Of a stretch of 64,000 bases of DNA, positions 44,008 through 64,000 are shown in pieces. The translations under genes were made by a program, and so were the position numbers. Under the pieces are notes generated by a model that did no database searches, was not told the origin of the DNA, and was given only the letters and a program-made list of their open reading frames with translations. The DNA comes from Ruminococcus sp. YE71 (GTDB taxonomy: Bacteria > Bacillota > Clostridia > Oscillospirales > Ruminococcaceae): positions 310,001 to 374,000 of the forward strand of contig NZ_FPIR01000001.1 in NCBI RefSeq assembly GCF_900119155.1, given 5' to 3'. Each line of letters begins with the position of its first letter. Position 1 is the first letter of the stretch.

Positions 44008-44075
44008 ACCGTTTACTCCGAAAAAGATACCGTTCACTCCGAACAGCTTTATTTTCGGGATAGATGTGGTATCAT
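44008..44075 (+). promoter_or_regulatory. LytTR-type direct-repeat promoter P1
   Basis: ACCGTTTAC (44008-44016) and ACCGTTCAC (44029-44037) are direct repeats with 21-bp periodicity, each followed by TCC. This is the usual layout of LytTR/AgrA-type sites. A -10-like TATCAT with TGTGG upstream is at 44070-44075, 32 nt after the second repeat. The same architecture occurs at 46550, and the LytTR regulator gene lies between. Confidence 0.75.
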
Positions 44076-44081
44076 AAATAC

Positions 44082-44390
44082 GCAGTGAAGCTGATTGTTC
44101 GTGCAGCCATACCGCATGATGTTTTCAGACAGACCTTTCACGGCAGCGCAGTCTGCTGTCAGGCTTTACCCCTCTCCATAAGTACGGCACAGAGTCTGTC
44201 TTTCTTCCGCTTGTCTTTCGGCGAACGGCACCAAAAGCACGGACAATTATCCCTTTGCTGTCTGATACCGATCGCCAAAAGGTCAGCAGTCCTCTCTCTG
44301 CCGGCCTTTTGGGGGTCAGTATAACTGACACTCCATATTGACCCTCGAAAAAACGACCTTCCCTCAGCTGCGGGGGAAGGTCGTTTGCTG
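44082..44390 (+). ncRNA. Putative LytTR-controlled small RNA
   Basis: Downstream of P1 there is no ORF with a ribosome binding site up to the terminator at 44352-44385. The segment has a long imperfect hairpin at about 44275-44312 (CCAAAAGG...GCAG with CTGC...CCTTTTGG) and a small one at about 44316-44329. Its end is convergent with the kinase gene. A non-coding transcript is inferred from promoter, terminator and structure; no RNA family was recognised. Confidence 0.45.
44352..44385. terminator. Bidirectional terminator between P1 transcript and kinase gene
   Basis: A 12-bp stem, AACGACCTTCCC with GGGAAGGTCGTT, has AAAA on one side and TTTGCTGTTCTT on the other. Confidence 0.8.
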
Positions 44391-44393
44391 TTC

Positions 44394-45695
44394 TTATTCG
44401 GCTATTTCCTGACTCAGCACCAGCTCAAGTTCGAGCCTGAACTGCCTGTCGTCGGCTGACAGGTGAACATCGCCGTCGTGCTTTTTGACGGTGGTGATAA
44501 TGTTCATCACGCCAAAACCGTGATGTTCCTTGTCCTCCTTAGAGGTCGGGATGGTGTTGTTCTCCTTTATCTCCACAGCCTCATAGATAGGGTTTGTGAT
44601 GGTGAAAAAGAAGAACCCCTGCTGACAGTCGGCTTCCGCCCTGATGATCTTGGGCATACCCGAAGTGTCCTTTCCGCAGGCTTCGATGGCGTTGTCTATG
44701 GCGTTCGCCGTGATTATGCACAGGTCAACGTTGCTTATACCTGCCGAAGGCACACGCCCCGAGAATACTATCTTTGTGTTTATCGCCGCGGCTCTTTCGT
44801 TCTTATCGTTCAGGAGCGCGTCGATGATGATGTTTCCCGAATTGAACTGATTCTTCTCCGCCGCCGAAAGACCTTCCAGCTCGTCGATGTATCTCAGCGC
44901 CTTTTCGGTCTCGTCCGCTTCGATAAGGCTCCGCAGGCAGATCATGTGGTTTTTCAGGTCGTGTCTGAAGCTCTTGAACTCGCCGTAGATGGCGTTTATC
45001 TTCTCGTAGTACTTGACCTCATTCTCGACCTGCTTTGACAGCATATCCACCGTCGTCTTTTTCTCCGCCTCCGACACGCTTATCTGTATGATGGAGATGG
45101 CGGTGATTATCAGCCCTATCATGCAGGGCAGTATGTATATCTTGTAGTAAAGCTCATGATTCGGCTTATTCTCGCCCATGACGAAGACCGCCGCTATCAG
45201 CAGGAGAAAGAGTATGTTCACATACAGCTTTTTCGGGAAGGAGCCCACCGTCCGATGGACGACCATCTCCAGCTTTTTCCGCTTGATATAGAACAGTATC
45301 AGCGACAGCGCGGCGACGTCGATCATGAAGGAGACCAGATTGCTGATCTCGCCGTTGTCGATGAAAGCCTGACAGATATTCATGTATATCTGAGGCGGAC
45401 ACATGGTCAGAAAGAAGATGTATATTATTTTCTGACTGAACCCGTCCAGTATCATGCTGAACGCGGCTATCCGCCCGACACAGTAGAAAATGAACAGTAT
45501 CTGCGTCACCGTTTTCGGAAAAACATCGGGCTTGCTTATCAGTATCGGCGCAGGGATAATGGAGATGACAAGGACAAGATACCCCAAGACCCTGCTTCGC
45601 GACGTCCTTATGCCGCAGACGATCTTTGAAAGCTGAACGATCAGGAGCTGTTCCGCAAGATTGGCGAGCATCGCCAGGAAAGAAATGATCGTCAT
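44394..45695 (-). CDS. AgrC-like GHKL sensor histidine kinase
   Basis: This 433-residue kinase has six or seven membrane helices (about 1-225), a coiled coil, and the phosphoacceptor motif FRHDLKNHM (His at about 253). A GHKL ATPase follows with N box CIITANAIDNAIEAC and G box HHGFGVMNI. The topology matches kinases that detect peptide pheromones. No agrB/agrD pair is present in the window. It starts 2 nt after the regulator stop, so the two are co-transcribed. The 7-codon ORF at 46674 is a candidate ligand source, by inference. Confidence 0.85.
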   Translation of the reverse strand: MTIISFLAMLANLAEQLLIVQLSKIVCGIRTSRSRVLGYLVLVISIIPAPILISKPDVFPKTVTQILFIFYCVGRIAAFSMILDGFSQKIIYIFFLTMCPPQIYMNICQAFIDNGEISNLVSFMIDVAALSLILFYIKRKKLEMVVHRTVGSFPKKLYVNILFLLLIAAVFVMGENKPNHELYYKIYILPCMIGLIITAISIIQISVSEAEKKTTVDMLSKQVENEVKYYEKINAIYGEFKSFRHDLKNHMICLRSLIEADETEKALRYIDELEGLSAAEKNQFNSGNIIIDALLNDKNERAAAINTKIVFSGRVPSAGISNVDLCIITANAIDNAIEACGKDTSGMPKIIRAEADCQQGFFFFTITNPIYEAVEIKENNTIPTSKEDKEHHGFGVMNIITTVKKHDGDVHLSADDRQFRLELELVLSQEIAE

Positions 45696-45697
45696 TT

Positions 45698-46411
45698 TCA
45701 GCTACCTCTCCGAAAATTATACCGCTTGATATAGTCGGCAAAGGCTTTTCTGAAGGGCGAGAGCTTCGCCCTGCTGATAAGCGCCCTCTCCTTATTGTCG
45801 AAGATTATGTCCGTCGCCGTGTGGGAGACGATGTGGCGGAACCCCACAAGGTACGTCCTGTGACAGCGGAAGAACCTGTCCTGCGGAAGCTGCTTTTCGA
45901 TCTCGGACAAGGTCTTCTTGTAAAGGAAAGTACCCTCATTCGTCCGTATATTGCAGTATTTGTCAGTCGCCTCTATGTAGATTATGTCGTTGATGTTTAT
46001 CTTGCGGTTGTTCTCATCGGTCTTGATAAGTATGAATCCCGCTCCCTCATTTTCCGCGAGATACGAGTCGAGAGCCGCCTCCAGCTTATCCACCTTGACG
46101 GGCTTTATCAGGAACCTGTAGGCGTTCACCTCAAATGTATCAAAGACGATATCGGGAAAACTTGTGAGGAAGATGATCGCTGTTCTGTCGTTTTTCTCTC
46201 TTATCCTTCTGGCGGTCTCAAGGCCGTCGATCTCCGACATCTGATAATCCATAAATATCAGATCATACTCGTTCTGACTGTTAATAAGATCGAATCCGCT
46301 GGTATAGCTGTGGTATACCATTATGAGATTTCTCTTTTTCGCAAAATTATCAAGATGCTTTATCAGCTCTGAATGAAAGAGCATCTGATCGTCACAGATC
46401 GCAACTCTCAT
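45698..46411 (-). CDS. LytTR-family response regulator
   Basis: The 237-residue protein starts at ATG 46411, 8 nt after AAGGGGGG; an upstream in-frame ATG lacks such a site. The receiver domain has acidic DD (AICDDQ), the phosphoacceptor in FMDYQMSE and Lys in FLIKPVK. The C-terminal LytTR domain (about 130-235: INDIIYIEATDKYCNIRT, FFRCHRTYLVG) binds direct repeats spaced about 21 bp. Two such sites flank this operon, at 44008 and 46550. Confidence 0.9.
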   Translation of the reverse strand: MRVAICDDQMLFHSELIKHLDNFAKKRNLIMVYHSYTSGFDLINSQNEYDLIFMDYQMSEIDGLETARRIREKNDRTAIIFLTSFPDIVFDTFEVNAYRFLIKPVKVDKLEAALDSYLAENEGAGFILIKTDENNRKININDIIYIEATDKYCNIRTNEGTFLYKKTLSEIEKQLPQDRFFRCHRTYLVGFRHIVSHTATDIIFDNKERALISRAKLSPFRKAFADYIKRYNFRRGS

Positions 46412-46549: not shown

Positions 46550-46619
46550 GCGGTTTACTCTGGTTTTTATACCGTTTGCTCCAAAAAATATTTGCCTTCG
46601 GCAGATAATGTGCTATAAT
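46550..46619 (+). promoter_or_regulatory. LytTR-type direct-repeat promoter P2, upstream of MFGWWDW
   Basis: GCGGTTTAC (46550-46558) and ACCGTTTGC (46571-46579) are direct repeats with 21-bp periodicity. TATAAT is at 46614-46619, 34 nt after the second repeat (32 nt at P1). There is no consensus -35 box, as in activator-dependent LytTR promoters. Confidence 0.8.
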
Positions 46620-46673
46620 AAAACCATAGGAACGAGAGTAACGGAGCGTATCCGAAGAAAAGGAGGTTTTACT

Positions 46674-46697
46674 ATGTTCGGCTGGTGGGACTGGTGA
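46674..46697 (+). CDS. Seven-residue peptide MFGWWDW (candidate signalling peptide)
   Basis: ATG TTC GGC TGG TGG GAC TGG TGA, preceded by AAAAGGAGG at the best possible spacing (7 nt) and by the LytTR-controlled promoter P2. The peptide has three Trp in seven residues and no leader. Its promoter is predicted to be activated by the neighbouring LytTR regulator, and an AgrC-like kinase is encoded next to it, so an autoinducing pheromone is a reasonable hypothesis. Alternatively it is an upstream ORF that tunes the structured RNA after it. It does not match a pheromone family I can name. Confidence 0.55.
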   Translation: MFGWWDW

Positions 46698-46712
46698 TCG
46701 TGACAAATCTTG

Positions 46713-46781
46713 TATACCGAGTGCCGTTCGGGACTGACGAAAAAAGTCTGTAACGACCGTATTTTCGCGGCATCCGGTATA
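46713..46781 (+). other. Long-range hairpin downstream of the 7-codon ORF
   Basis: TATACCGAGTGCCG (46713-46726) is nearly complementary to CGGCATCCGGTATA (46768-46781), with a 41-nt loop that has smaller inner pairs. It is in the same transcript as MFGWWDW and is a candidate regulatory RNA structure. Confidence 0.5.
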
Positions 46782-46967
46782 AAACAGAGTAAGCATTAGA
46801 TCTTTTATCTAATTTATTATATCACAATTTGAATTTTATGTCAATTATTTGACATCAAAAAAATTCTGACTTTTTTGTGCTTTTGTTCAGCGTTCGCCGT
46901 ATCGGGGAAAAGCACACGGTCTTAAAATGTCCGTTCCTTTTACTTGTAAGCATATATTCCCAGATCG

Positions 46968-47094: not shown

Positions 47095-50000
47095 TTATTT
47101 CACAAAGCCGTAAAGACCGTTTATCTTCTGATCCTTGACAGCCTTGGCCACAAGACCTGCCACGATGTTCGCACCCTTCTCGCAGAAGTGTGTGCCGTCA
47201 GTCGAGCCGCTTACCGCGCCCATCAGATGATAGGAAAGCGCAGTGTTGTAGCCCACGGAGTTGTAGTGGTTCACCATGATGGTGTTCAGGTCGATGCAGG
47301 GGATATAGTACTTAGCCGCCAGACTCTTGCAGGCGTTGCAGTAGTCGGTGTAGCTGTTCACGAAGCGTCCCTGCGAGCTGTTGTACGCGCCCATGCCGAT
47401 AACGGTAGTTACCAGAATCGGGGTCGCGCCCTTGGCATTCGCGTCCTTGATGAACTGTGTCATGTACCACTCATACGAGCCCGAGGTCGGGTTGTCAACG
47501 TTGCCGCAGACAGGAGCGTAACGGTCGGCGTTCGACTTGCCCGCGTCGTTTATCGCGAACTGTATCAGCACGTAGTCACCGGGTTTCAGGGCGCTGACAA
47601 GACTGCTCCATCTGCCCTCGTCGTATGCCTTCTTGGTGCTTCTGCCCGCCATCGAGTAGTTCTCGACATTGACGCCGCCGTTGAAGTAGTCAGCCAGATA
47701 GTAGCCCCAACCCTGCTGAGGAGCATAGCTTGCGCGGTAGGACTGCACCGTCGAGTCGCCGAGGATGAAGACGGTGGGCTTGTTAGCGTCCAGCTGCTGC
47801 TGATAGCTTTCGGGGTCGTAGGTCTCGCCGTAGGGTTCGTCGGTGGGCGTGAGGTTGATGTAATCAAGGTTCGGACCGCCCTGACCTGCAACTGCCGATA
47901 CCATCTTTATGGTATTGACACCCTGCACCAGCGGAAGCACGATGCCGAACTCGGTCCAGTTCGTCCATGCGCCCGTGCCCGTGAAGGACTGGAGCCAGAA
48001 GCGGCCGGTATCGCCGTTGACATATATCTTCATCTGGCGGTCGGTGGTGGAGCCGTTGGCAAAGCGGATGTGCGTCATGTAGTTTCCTGCATTCTTCACA
48101 TTGACCGTAAAGGTGATATTGCTCGAATCGTTATTGTCGAGGTTGATGTAGCCTTTTTCGCTTGTGTATCCTGCGTTGGTGGTCTCGATAACGCCCTCTT
48201 CCCAGGTCTGATCCACCGCGTAGTAATTTCCGCCTTCGGAGAGTGCCGAGCCGTTATAAGCCTCGACCGTCATATAGTCCATATTCGGGCCGCCGTTTGA
48301 AGTGTTGGACTCGGTCTTAATGGTGTTTTTGCCTGCCTTCAGCGGAAGGACGATGCTCTTTTCTTCCCAGTTCGTCCATGCGCCCGTGCCGTTGAAATCC
48401 AGATAATAAGCCGAACCGCCGTTGACGGTGATCTTCATGGAGCGGTCGTCGGTCGAACCGTTGGCATAGCGGAAGGTGACTGTATAGTCGCCGTCTGCGG
48501 GAGCGGTGACCGTCCAGTTGAGGTAACTGCCGAGAACATTGTTGTAATTCCAGTAAGCTGTACCTTCAAAGCCGCCGTTAATGGTCTCTTCGATGCCTTC
48601 GTAGCCCTCAGCGTCGATCGCGTAATAGCGCTGACTGCTGTTCTCAACGAGCTGTTCTCTCAGCCCCACGAGGAACTCCTGCATGATGCGGACGTCGTCA
48701 TCGGTGACAGCGCCGTCGCCGTTAAGGTCGCAGACCGTAACGGGCAGGGAAACGTATCCGCTGTTCTTGTCCGCGGCGCGCTTGAGGAGCACCAGATCGG
48801 AAAGGTCGATGATGCTGTCCTGATTAAGGTCGCCGATCATGGTCGGCACCGATGCGGTGGGTTCTTCGGGTGCGGGCGGATCGACGGGGTCATCGGTCTT
48901 CTCGCACTTTTCCGCCTTCCAGTTCTGGCACTTGCTGTAGGACATTCCCCACTGCTGAACGTTCGCGCCGTTCTCCTTGCTTGCGGAAGCGGTCTCAACG
49001 AAGCAAGCGTCCTTGGACGAACGGGTGGAGATGTAGTAAGAACCGTCGCCGAGCTTCGTGAACTGGAACAGCATCATGCTGTCCTTGCCCGAATAGGGCA
49101 CAAGCTCGATATTTCCGCCTGCGGAGCCCGTCATAGCCTTCCACACGTAGTTCTCGTCAGCGGCAGAGCGTACATAATAATATGTAGTGCCGTTATTGAA
49201 GGGGGTCAGCTTCCACTTCTGATTGTTCTGACCGTTCGCGCTCCACTGCTGGACATTCGCACCCTCCTTGATCTCGGCGTTGGCAACGTCCATCACAAGA
49301 CCGCTGTTCGTGTTCTTGAAGGTGTAGTAAACGCTCGTATCCATCTCGGTATCGCCGATCTTCATGAGGTTTGCCACGAGCTCGGCGTTTTTCTGAGCGC
49401 CCTTTGCACTCTGGTGCAGGTCGTCGTTTGCGGCGTAGTATTCGCCCATAGCGTCATAGCCGCCGATGCTGAAACCGAAATCCTGCCAGGCGTTGAACAG
49501 GTCAACGCAGGTGACGTTCTGTTCCTTCGCGATAGTGTCGAGCTGACCGCCGAACCATCTTCCGCCGAGTTTCGGACTGCGGTTGAAGTCGCCGCGTCTG
49601 CCCTGCTGTTTAACGAGTATGACGTTCATTCCCTTAGCCTTAGCCGCCTTGACCATCTCGGTCACTATGTTATAATACTCGTCGGCGTTGGAATAGTTGG
49701 TGTCGTTGATGCCGATGGAGATTATGTAGTAATCCCCCGCTTTTCCGTAGGTCTTTATCGGGTCGAACTGACCATCCTGATAGAAGCCCTTTGCATACTG
49801 ACCGCTCGAAGCCTGATTGCGGACTTCAAACACGTTGGTGTTGACATAGTTGTTCAGATACTGTCCCCAGCCGTGCTGTGCGGTATCAGCCGTGTTGTAG
49901 TAATTTGCAACGGTGGAGTCGCCGCATATCCAGATAGTCGGTTTCATCTCGCCCGTTGTGTTCAGCTGAGTGATCTCGATCGAGGAGATGGAGTATTCGG

Positions 50001-50487
50001 AATTGTTCATTCCTGCAACTGCCTGAATATTCAGCTGTCCGTCCGTAACAGGGACCTGTATAGTCTCCCTCGCGTTAGTTCCCGTGAGGTTTATCATCTG
50101 ATACATACCCTCGACCTTGATGGAAGTGCGCTTGGTATTGCCCGTTACCACGGTCAGCTGATAAAGTCCCTTCGGAAGATCGACGTTGAACGTGCCGCCC
50201 GTGAACTTGACCGCATCGGAAAGTGCGCCCGAGCCGCCTGCGCTGACGTTTGAAACGCTTCCCGAAAAGCCGTACCCTCTGGAACTGTTGTAGCCGTCGC
50301 CCGCGGAAACTCCCGTGTAGCCGCCTGCCGTGCCCGACCCGCCGAGGTCGAACTTCCAGTTTACCGTTGCGGCATCAGCTTTTAAAGCCGTGCCTGCCGA
50401 AAAAGTCGAAAGTGCCATCATCGCCACGGACATTCCGCCCAGAACTTTTGAACATCGTGACACTTTCTTTCTGTGAAACAGATTCAT
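47095..50487 (-). CDS. Cellulosomal double CE12 esterase with RICIN, dockerin and two CBM35
   Basis: This 1130-residue secreted protein starts at ATG 50487 behind GGAGG. Order: signal peptide (1-40); N-terminal beta-sandwich (about 40-175) typical of CE12; first SGNH esterase (about 180-380, ICGDSTV, GINDT, DDLHQ); ricin-type CBM13 (about 388-540); dockerin (about 548-612, DLNQDSIIDLSDL, DLNGDGAVTDDDV); two CBM35 domains (about 619-745 and 752-880); second SGNH esterase (about 903-1115, ILGDSTV, AINDAG, DGTHF). CE12 enzymes deacetylate pectin (rhamnogalacturonan) or xylan. The same layout is known from R. flavefaciens. Confidence 0.9.
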   Translation of the reverse strand: MNLFHRKKVSRCSKVLGGMSVAMMALSTFSAGTALKADAATVNWKFDLGGSGTAGGYTGVSAGDGYNSSRGYGFSGSVSNVSAGGSGALSDAVKFTGGTFNVDLPKGLYQLTVVTGNTKRTSIKVEGMYQMINLTGTNARETIQVPVTDGQLNIQAVAGMNNSEYSISSIEITQLNTTGEMKPTIWICGDSTVANYYNTADTAQHGWGQYLNNYVNTNVFEVRNQASSGQYAKGFYQDGQFDPIKTYGKAGDYYIISIGINDTNYSNADEYYNIVTEMVKAAKAKGMNVILVKQQGRRGDFNRSPKLGGRWFGGQLDTIAKEQNVTCVDLFNAWQDFGFSIGGYDAMGEYYAANDDLHQSAKGAQKNAELVANLMKIGDTEMDTSVYYTFKNTNSGLVMDVANAEIKEGANVQQWSANGQNNQKWKLTPFNNGTTYYYVRSAADENYVWKAMTGSAGGNIELVPYSGKDSMMLFQFTKLGDGSYYISTRSSKDACFVETASASKENGANVQQWGMSYSKCQNWKAEKCEKTDDPVDPPAPEEPTASVPTMIGDLNQDSIIDLSDLVLLKRAADKNSGYVSLPVTVCDLNGDGAVTDDDVRIMQEFLVGLREQLVENSSQRYYAIDAEGYEGIEETINGGFEGTAYWNYNNVLGSYLNWTVTAPADGDYTVTFRYANGSTDDRSMKITVNGGSAYYLDFNGTGAWTNWEEKSIVLPLKAGKNTIKTESNTSNGGPNMDYMTVEAYNGSALSEGGNYYAVDQTWEEGVIETTNAGYTSEKGYINLDNNDSSNITFTVNVKNAGNYMTHIRFANGSTTDRQMKIYVNGDTGRFWLQSFTGTGAWTNWTEFGIVLPLVQGVNTIKMVSAVAGQGGPNLDYINLTPTDEPYGETYDPESYQQQLDANKPTVFILGDSTVQSYRASYAPQQGWGYYLADYFNGGVNVENYSMAGRSTKKAYDEGRWSSLVSALKPGDYVLIQFAINDAGKSNADRYAPVCGNVDNPTSGSYEWYMTQFIKDANAKGATPILVTTVIGMGAYNSSQGRFVNSYTDYCNACKSLAAKYYIPCIDLNTIMVNHYNSVGYNTALSYHLMGAVSGSTDGTHFCEKGANIVAGLVAKAVKDQKINGLYGFVK

Positions 50488-50662
50488 GTTTATTACCTCC
50501 ATTCTATGCATCTTTATTCACAGTAAGACCATTATTTTAATTATATCAGATGACATATTTACCTGTCAATCAATATTTTTGAAAAAATAGTGGATTATTT
50601 ACATATTTTGTTTGTATTCCGCACATTTTTTGTACCAGATGCAGTGGCGACTGCGGATGCTC

Positions 50663-63410: not shown

Positions 63411-64000
63411 TTATTCTTCTTCCGTGGGTCTGTACATCAGGATGCTTACGTTGAATATGTGCTCGTGCGTCTCTATCTCCATCGAACCATTATACCTGTC
63501 TACTATACTCGCTACCGATCTTAACCCTATCCCATGATCCGCTTTCGTCGTTACAGGCAACCCGTTCTTGTCTAACATTATCCCGCCTCTGTACGGATTG
63601 AATATCGAGATCACTAACGTCTCATATAATAACATCCCGACTTTGATGTTCACCAGTCGATCGTCACCCTCAAGCTTCGACGCGGCATTTATCGCATTCT
63701 CTAATAGATTGCCTAATACCGCACACATATCACTCTCCCTGAATCCTAACTTCTCGGGAAGATCCAGCGACCACGTTATCGCTACTCCACTCTCCTTCGC
63801 GATCTCGTCATAATGCCTCGCTATCGCATCAACTATGCGGTTCGCACATAACGTTCGGTTCGGATTGTTCGCTGTCCTTACTATCGGCGCTATGTACTTC
63901 TTCAGATTCTCTATCTCGTTCCTGTTCAGCATATCTTCGATGATGAGCAGATGCTGCCTGAAATCATGCCTCAGCTCACTCGTCTCCCGCAGATATTGCT
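63411..64000 (-). CDS. Second AgrC-like sensor histidine kinase, N-terminal part outside window
   Basis: The frame is open to the window edge at 64000. The visible C-terminal ~195 residues begin near the phosphoacceptor motif LRHDFRQH and continue into a GHKL ATPase with N box MCAVLGNLLENAINAA and G box DHGIGLRSV. It resembles the kinase at 44394 in type. Its regulator and sensor are outside the window. Confidence 0.8.
   Translation of the reverse strand, partial: QYLRETSELRHDFRQHLLIIEDMLNRNEIENLKKYIAPIVRTANNPNRTLCANRIVDAIARHYDEIAKESGVAITWSLDLPEKLGFRESDMCAVLGNLLENAINAASKLEGDDRLVNIKVGMLLYETLVISIFNPYRGGIMLDKNGLPVTTKADHGIGLRSVASIVDRYNGSMEIETHEHIFNVSILMYRPTEEE

What the first reader, a model, noticed from the sequence alone, without database searches (positions are those of the whole stretch)
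46550..46781. Seven-residue peptide MFGWWDW under LytTR control beside an AgrC-like kinase
A 7-codon ORF with an ideal ribosome binding site lies 55 nt after a TATAAT box preceded by a 21-bp-spaced LytTR-type direct repeat. The adjacent operon encodes an AgrC-like kinase and a LytTR regulator, and no agrB/agrD pair is present. If the peptide is exported and sensed, this would be a leaderless, Trp-rich autoinducer circuit. The alternative is a short upstream ORF controlling the structured RNA that follows.
Basis: partly seen in the sequence, partly recalled or inferred. Interest (0 to 1): 0.86.

Follow-up and report, generated by a model that had tools for sequence, protein, structure and literature searches.

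The report
Tiny tryptophan-rich signal peptide beside kinase
A Ruminococcus genome carries a seven-amino-acid gene next to a membrane sensor kinase, and similar tiny tryptophan-rich genes sit beside the same kind of kinase in many relatives, so they are probably ready-made chemical signals that switch on bacteriocin-like genes.

Summary
In detail: LytTR-type 21-bp repeat, TATAAT, AGGAGG and MFGWWDW at 46551-46697 (+), divergent from a LytTR regulator and AgrC-like kinase. It is not chance: in 38 of 52 distinct regulator-kinase loci the divergent 450 bp hold a Shine-Dalgarno-led micro-ORF (33 with Trp), against 5 (1 with Trp) on the other strand. The nearest relative encodes the same MFGWWDW with silent changes only, while the RNA behind it is not conserved. 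Strongest evidence: two relatives share an identical regulator, operator and promoter and a 95-100% identical kinase half, yet differ abruptly in just the micropeptide and the kinase's sensor half, the pattern of agr specificity groups. The operator also precedes a bacteriocin-type operon, and an apparently lost one left its promoter at 44009. AgrB was not found in the genome. Best reading: a leaderless peptide pheromone for an AgrC-type kinase. In 20 of 38 loci the regulator-kinase promoter lies beyond the peptide gene, so the receptor mRNA leader would be antisense to the signal gene. Translation, export and binding are inferred, not shown; no exporter was identified.

The parts
46551..46582 (+). 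LytTR-type direct repeat, period 21 (operator of the peptide promoter)
   Evidence: conserved before the micro-ORF in relatives at 30-31 nt from the -10 box
46611..46619 (+). extended -10 box TGCTATAAT of the peptide transcript
46661..46666 (+). Shine-Dalgarno AGGAGG
46674..46697 (+). micro-ORF MFGWWDW, proposed leaderless pheromone
46816..46844 (-). consensus promoter TTGACA-17-TATAAT (extended -10) of the regulator-kinase operon; its leader would run antisense through the micro-ORF and operator
   Evidence: conserved in L082 25/29 positions; position class in 20 of 38 loci
46784..46794 (-). single regulator half-site GCTTACTCTGT 21 nt after that -10 box, possible autoregulation
   Evidence: 10-11 of 11 matches in the window, L083, L084, L085, L087, L089; 8 of 11 in L082; chance-like in most others
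45698..46411 (-). LytTR response regulator
44394..45695 (-). AgrC-like GHKL sensor kinase, proposed receptor
44009..44107 (+). second operator with -10 TATCAT and leader; remnant promoter of a bacteriocin-type operon present in L082
44330..44386 (+). terminator region shared with the far end of that L082 operon

Best explanation
The 7-codon gene makes a leaderless Trp-rich peptide pheromone. The peptide leaves the cell by an unknown route and is sensed by the AgrC-like kinase encoded next door, which phosphorylates the LytTR regulator. The regulator binds 21-bp direct repeats and raises the peptide itself (positive feedback) and bacteriocin-like genes elsewhere. The regulator-kinase operon appears to start from a strong ordinary promoter beyond the peptide gene, so its mRNA leader would be antisense to the signal gene; colliding transcription may limit receptor synthesis once the circuit fires. 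Shown by sequence: the parts, conservation of the peptide by silent change, family-wide pairing with the kinase, joint change of peptide and sensor in one allele pair, operators before bacteriocin-type genes, no AgrB match. Inferred: translation, export, binding to the kinase, activation by the regulator, the antisense effect.
For: Micro-ORF in 38 of 52 loci against 5 on the other strand and in 0 of 6 loci from outside the family. Window and its nearest relative L082 share MFGWWDW with only silent differences. L105 and L106: regulator proteins identical, DNA identical from the regulator start through operator, -10 and Shine-Dalgarno (about 270 nt), then MLDFIINFFR against MFDFIKIIFG; kinase residues 1-175 16-60% identical per 25-residue bin, the rest 84-100%; DNA 58-83% in the sensor part between flanks of 95-100%. 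Sensor halves evolve faster in general (mean identity 0.21 against 0.48). Sister kinases carry similar peptides. Target operon with TIGR01654 and TIGR03608 matches under the same operator in this genome, and a similar operon beside the identical peptide gene in L082. No AgrB match.
Against: No transcript, peptide or binding data. No dedicated exporter beside the gene in the window; a transporter directly behind the micro-ORF was seen only in L094. Over 33 kinases peptide similarity tracks the sensor no better than the catalytic half (rho 0.19 for both; 16 of 1000 permutations as high). In L105/L106 the DNA beyond the micro-ORF also stays different, so that side could be a simple breakpoint, and it is one pair only. 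Some relatives lack a micro-ORF (for example L037/L098, L109, L111, L212).
Confidence: 0.77

Rival explanations
1. Effector, not signal: the micropeptide is a regulator-controlled secreted effector, comparable to delta-hemolysin or PSMs under AgrA (recalled), and the kinase senses something else.
For: Divergent position and LytTR control resemble the RNAIII promoter next to agr (recalled). Some copies head operons with secreted proteins (L059, L086, L088). Peptides are very hydrophobic.
Against: 7-10 residues are too short for a pore-forming amphipathic helix (inference). Joint change of peptide and sensor with all else kept is expected of a ligand, not of an effector. No other signal gene is seen in the locus.
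Confidence: 0.1
2. Inside signal: the peptide is not exported but acts on the kinase from within the membrane or cytoplasm, as a self-limiting regulator.
For: No exporter beside it in the window; hydrophobic; paired with a membrane kinase.
Against: Bacteriocin-type targets and allelic diversity fit signalling between cells. Leaderless 8-residue peptides are reported as secreted in the LCP class (PMC10518010, abstract start and passages).
Confidence: 0.07
3. Translated leader ORF: ribosomes on the Trp codons control the following RNA (attenuation or antisense control of the regulator leader); the peptide has no function of its own.
For: WW and W codons recall trp leaders (recalled); the regulator-kinase leader would be antisense to the ORF.
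Against: Some relatives have no Trp (MLDFIINFFR, MFDFIKIIFG); what follows varies (nothing, secreted proteins, transporter); RNA after the ORF is neither unusually structured nor conserved; silent changes are tolerated.
Confidence: 0.04

Closest known systems
Leaderless communication peptides (LCP/SIP) with RopB receptors (PMC10518010 passages; PMC13361665 passages)
   Same: Ultrashort leaderless peptide ORF with a strong RBS, usually divergent from its receptor gene, rich in aliphatic and aromatic residues, sequence varies between lineages
   Different: LCP receptors are cytosolic RopB/Rgg regulators reached after re-import; here the presumed receptor is a membrane AgrC-like kinase with a LytTR regulator. 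'Histidine kinase' does not occur in the main text of PMC10518010
agr quorum sensing (AgrBDCA) and RNAIII
   Same: AgrC-like GHKL kinase, LytTR regulator, direct-repeat operator, divergent transcript with a small ORF, sensor and signal changing together
   Different: No AgrB match in the genome, regulator gene before the kinase gene, signal ORF 7-24 codons without a precursor to process
Bacteriocin-inducing peptide systems with LytTR regulators (Blp, Com, plantaricin type; recalled)
   Same: Peptide pheromone, kinase, LytTR regulator and direct repeats before bacteriocin operons and the signal gene
   Different: Those signals are made with a double-glycine leader and a peptidase-ABC exporter (recalled); 7-14 residues leave no room for such a leader

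Membership tests
agr (AgrBDCA) | AgrC-like kinase with LytTR regulator | tested here: met
   (AgrC NCBIfam match far below its equivalog cut-off)
agr (AgrBDCA) | AgrB processing protease | tested here: not met
   no PF04647 match in the whole genome; found in 5 of the other 7 genomes of the same call
agr (AgrBDCA) | AgrD precursor giving a thiolactone or lactone peptide | tested here: not met
   the only SD-led micro-ORF at the locus has 7 residues and no Cys or Ser; AgrD was not searched for elsewhere in the genome
LCP class with RopB | leaderless ultrashort hydrophobic peptide ORF next to its receptor | tested here: met
LCP class with RopB | RopB/Rgg-type cytosolic receptor gene adjacent | tested here: not met
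   adjacent genes are a GHKL kinase and a LytTR regulator
Peptide pheromone circuit (general) | signal gene under control of its own regulator | tested here: inconclusive
   operator and -10 conserved in front of the micro-ORF; binding not tested
Peptide pheromone circuit (general) | signal and sensor domain vary together | tested here: inconclusive
   clear in one allele pair; weak and not sensor-specific over 33 kinases
Peptide pheromone circuit (general) | peptide is secreted and induces from outside | not testable with these tools
   needs culture experiments
Lactococcin 972-type operon (target, L162) | Lactococcin_972 domain in the small secreted protein | tested here: not met
   no lactococcin match for the 104-aa protein or the 110-aa L082 protein
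Lactococcin 972-type operon (target, L162) | bacteriocin-associated membrane protein and L_ocin_972-type ABC ATPase | tested here: inconclusive
   TIGR01654 6.7e-18 (64.5 of 189.35 bits) and TIGR03608 1e-75 (253.8 of 254.85 bits): clear similarity, both below the curated cut-offs

The most novel reading that the evidence does not exclude
A new class of peptide quorum sensing spread through Ruminococcaceae: unprocessed 7-15 residue Trp/Phe-rich peptides, translated as the finished signal, act from outside on AgrC-type membrane kinases without AgrB or a leader. In the Ruminococcus branch the signal gene lies antisense inside the 5' leader of its own receptor mRNA, so making signal and making receptor hinder each other, which could set a switch for bacteriocin production.
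Probability: 0.55. Interest if true: 0.92.

Novelty: new variant of a known kind. Interest (0 to 1): 0.87.

Why it matters
If true, AgrC-like kinases that have no AgrB partner get a ligand class that ordinary gene finding misses because of its length. Cultured cellulose degraders (R. albus 8, KH2T6 and AR67; R. flavefaciens 007c and XPD3002) would have a testable peptide language, with synthetic 7-14-mers as probes. It would also mean that a membrane kinase can be served by an unprocessed leaderless peptide. Whether antisense nesting of a signal gene in its receptor's leader has been described was not searched for.

Tried and rejected
Structured RNA after the ORF: no Rfam match in the window; z -0.85 for the + transcript and -0.81 for the opposite leader; little conserved in L082. 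A hidden agr module: no AgrB match. A gene behind the 44009 site: a scan found no convincing SD-led ORF near it; it aligns with the promoter of an operon kept in L082. The ~150-aa DUF5085/GyrI-like neighbour as a core part: in 18 of 36 loci but no match in the window's genome (which warns that an empty answer alone shows little). Exact micro-ORF pattern in the genus: only the window's genome of 13. Early micro-ORF calls used a greedy spacing rule that chose wrong starts (for example VGLDLRNLRISQQI); corrected from then on. Operator scans in seven relatives also gave control hits (0-3 per genome), and some of their sites (L069, L075) look like chance. A kinase model (mean pLDDT 78.4, pTM 0.46) shows an N-terminal helical bundle and a long helix; no fold search was run. 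The tests used pairs picked by hand for equal or similar peptides, which favours silent change; only window/L082 was chosen by kinase similarity.

Full report
What is there. The window is G000:C33:310001-374000 of a 4.07-Mb, 43-contig genome. At 46551-46582 (+) lies a direct repeat of period 21, then an extended -10 box ending at 46619, AGGAGG at 46661-46666 and the ORF MFGWWDW at 46674-46697. Divergent from it run a LytTR response regulator (45698-46411) and a GHKL kinase with AgrC-like matches (44394-45695). A 12-of-12 consensus promoter with extended -10 lies on the minus strand at 46844-46816, beyond the micro-ORF, so the regulator mRNA leader of about 400 nt would run antisense through the peptide gene and its operator.

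Is the micro-ORF real? Kinase relatives were gathered in the genus (13 genomes), the family (23 of 396 genomes with a hit at E 1e-30) and the species-representative collection (376 relatives, best 80 kept). After deduplication by regulator sequence 52 regulator-kinase pairs had at least 250 bp upstream. In 38 of 52 the divergent strand holds an ATG ORF of 5-25 codons behind a Shine-Dalgarno with at least 5 of 6 matches; 33 contain Trp and 26 have an ORF at least 25% aromatic. On the opposite strand the counts are 5, 1 and 0; in 50 dinucleotide shuffles the means are 3.4, 0.6 and 0.3, the maxima 9, 5 and 3. Three of the 38 (L008, L048, L145) look like noise; L095 and L103 carry the ORF outside or across the 450 bp limit and count as misses. 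A second survey fetched 39 loci of which 12 passed the same filter: 6 were family members (at least five seen before) and all 6 had the ORF; 0 of 6 from other families had it. Genus searches around two relatives added one new allele, MQDWFDWWGW (L215), and one locus without (L212).

The peptides. Thirty-five distinct sequences of 7-24 residues were tallied: 15% Trp, 14% Phe, 13% Gly after the start; 32 with Trp, 32 without Cys. Examples: MFGWWDW (window and L082, uncultured Ruminococcus RUG10798), MLDWFDWWGW (R. albus 8), MQDWFDFWGWFL (R. albus KH2T6), MQYWFDLWGWNF (R. albus AR67), MTWSTILDFLFGNK (R. flavefaciens 007c), MWDWLFG (R. flavefaciens XPD3002), and MGGFWDFIFGR in two cassettes in L092 and three in L104. 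On a quick kinase tree of 38 rows (four loci, L082 among them, dropped because the script found no kinase by its motif) sister kinases carry similar peptides.

Selection on the peptide. Window and L082, whose kinase is the closest found (79%), differ in the ORF by TTC>TTT, GGC>GGA and TGA>TAA, all silent. The ORF keeps 21/24 positions, the stretch after the stop 42/86, the minus-strand promoter 25/29. In eight hand-picked pairs, six depart from random substitution at P 0.0003-0.05, while L097/L101 (0.46) and L083/L084 (0.22) do not; picking pairs by similar peptides favours this result. The RNA behind the ORF is not unusually structured.

Joint change of peptide and sensor. L105 and L106 (the genomes G250 and G1134 appear to be the same) have regulators that are identical in every 25-residue bin. 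Their DNA is identical from the regulator start through operator, -10 box and Shine-Dalgarno, about 270 nt. There the sequences part: MLDFIINFFR against MFDFIKIIFG. In the kinase, residues 1-175 are 16-60% identical per bin and the rest 84-100%. At DNA level the sensor part is at 58-83% between flanks of mostly 95-100%. This is the pattern of agr specificity groups (recalled). Two cautions: DNA beyond the micro-ORF stays different (43-83%), and it is one pair. Over 33 kinases peptide similarity correlates only weakly with kinase identity, equally for sensor and catalytic half (rho 0.19; 16 of 1000 permutations as high).

The regulon. At up to 3 mismatches the genome has three operator matches and one backwards-control match. 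One site precedes a 104-aa secreted protein, a 655-aa protein like TIGR01654 (bacteriocin-associated integral membrane protein, 6.7e-18) and an ABC ATPase like TIGR03608 (putative bacteriocin export, 1e-75), both below the curated cut-offs. The small protein matches no lactococcin model. In L082, beside the identical peptide gene, a similar operon (110-aa secreted protein, membrane protein, TIGR03608-like ATPase) converges on the kinase under an operator. The window's site at 44009-44107 aligns with that promoter and leader (82% over 102 columns, E 2e-19), and the terminator region at 44330-44382 with the far end of the L082 operon; 3.0 kb in L082 stand against 0.2 kb here. A lost bacteriocin-type operon is the simplest reading; the direction of change is inferred. 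In relatives operators precede secreted proteins, a radical-SAM operon and a ~150-aa DUF5085/GyrI-like gene.

Receptor operon. By consensus scan the best regulator-strand promoter lies beyond the micro-ORF in 20 of 38 loci, overlaps it in one (L094), lies 16-51 nt from the regulator start in 11 of a more distant branch, and elsewhere in 6 (L095, L103, L105, L106, L108, L115). A half-site GTTTACTCTGT stands 20-27 nt after the -10 box in the window, L083, L084, L085, L087 and L089 with 10-11 of 11 matches; L082 has 8 and most others are chance-like.

Mechanism and gaps. A leaderless pheromone sensed by the adjacent kinase, with positive feedback and bacteriocin-type output, fits best. AgrB gave no match in the genome. 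Translation, export and binding are not shown. The exporter is open: a transporter directly behind the micro-ORF was seen in L094, and the same transporter some 1.5-2 kb further in L092, L095 and L104. My confidence in the pheromone reading rose.

What is known. The LCP class has the same peptide type with RopB receptors (PMC10518010 passages; PMC13361665 passages). A rumen signalling review speaks of AHL, AI-2 and agrA/agrB genes and names no such peptides in the passages seen (PMC10838665). A bacteriocin survey of rumen isolates has no 'pheromone' in its main text (PMC13289728) and a review of two-component quorum sensing no 'leaderless' (PMC8895600). Eight text searches (listings, mostly not opened) showed no title or abstract start on leaderless micropeptides with AgrC-type kinases. 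Only open-licence papers are held; preprints and most subscription papers were not searched.

Noticed in passing
window 44009-44386: Promoter, leader and terminator ends of a bacteriocin-type operon that is intact in L082; about 3.0 kb there against 0.2 kb here.
   Followed up: yes
18 of 36 loci, e.g. L084 7442-7912, L097 4058-4513: A ~150-aa protein weakly like DUF5085/GyrI-like, often behind its own LytTR operator next to the kinase; function unknown.
   Followed up: partly
L065 (G353:C6:46757): LytTR-type operator in front of a 431-aa protein followed by an ORF that begins like a radical-SAM protein (CxxxCxxC), possibly a RiPP operon.
   Followed up: no
L104 4588-5165 and L092 4846-5126 (-): Tandem operator-peptide cassettes encoding the same MGGFWDFIFGR.
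   Followed up: partly
L094 5230 (-): A reading frame open past the usual end lengthens MGGFWDFIFG to 20 residues and runs into the regulator-strand promoter.
   Followed up: no
window 63441-64000 (-): A second, distant AgrC-like kinase (23% identity) runs off the window end.
   Followed up: no
L180 (G912:C3:217776-218741): A kinase relative with one in-frame TGA; read error, pseudogene or recoding not examined.
   Followed up: no
window 50569-50540 (-): Another 12-of-12 consensus promoter with extended -10 in front of the 1138-aa ORF 47095-50511.
   Followed up: no
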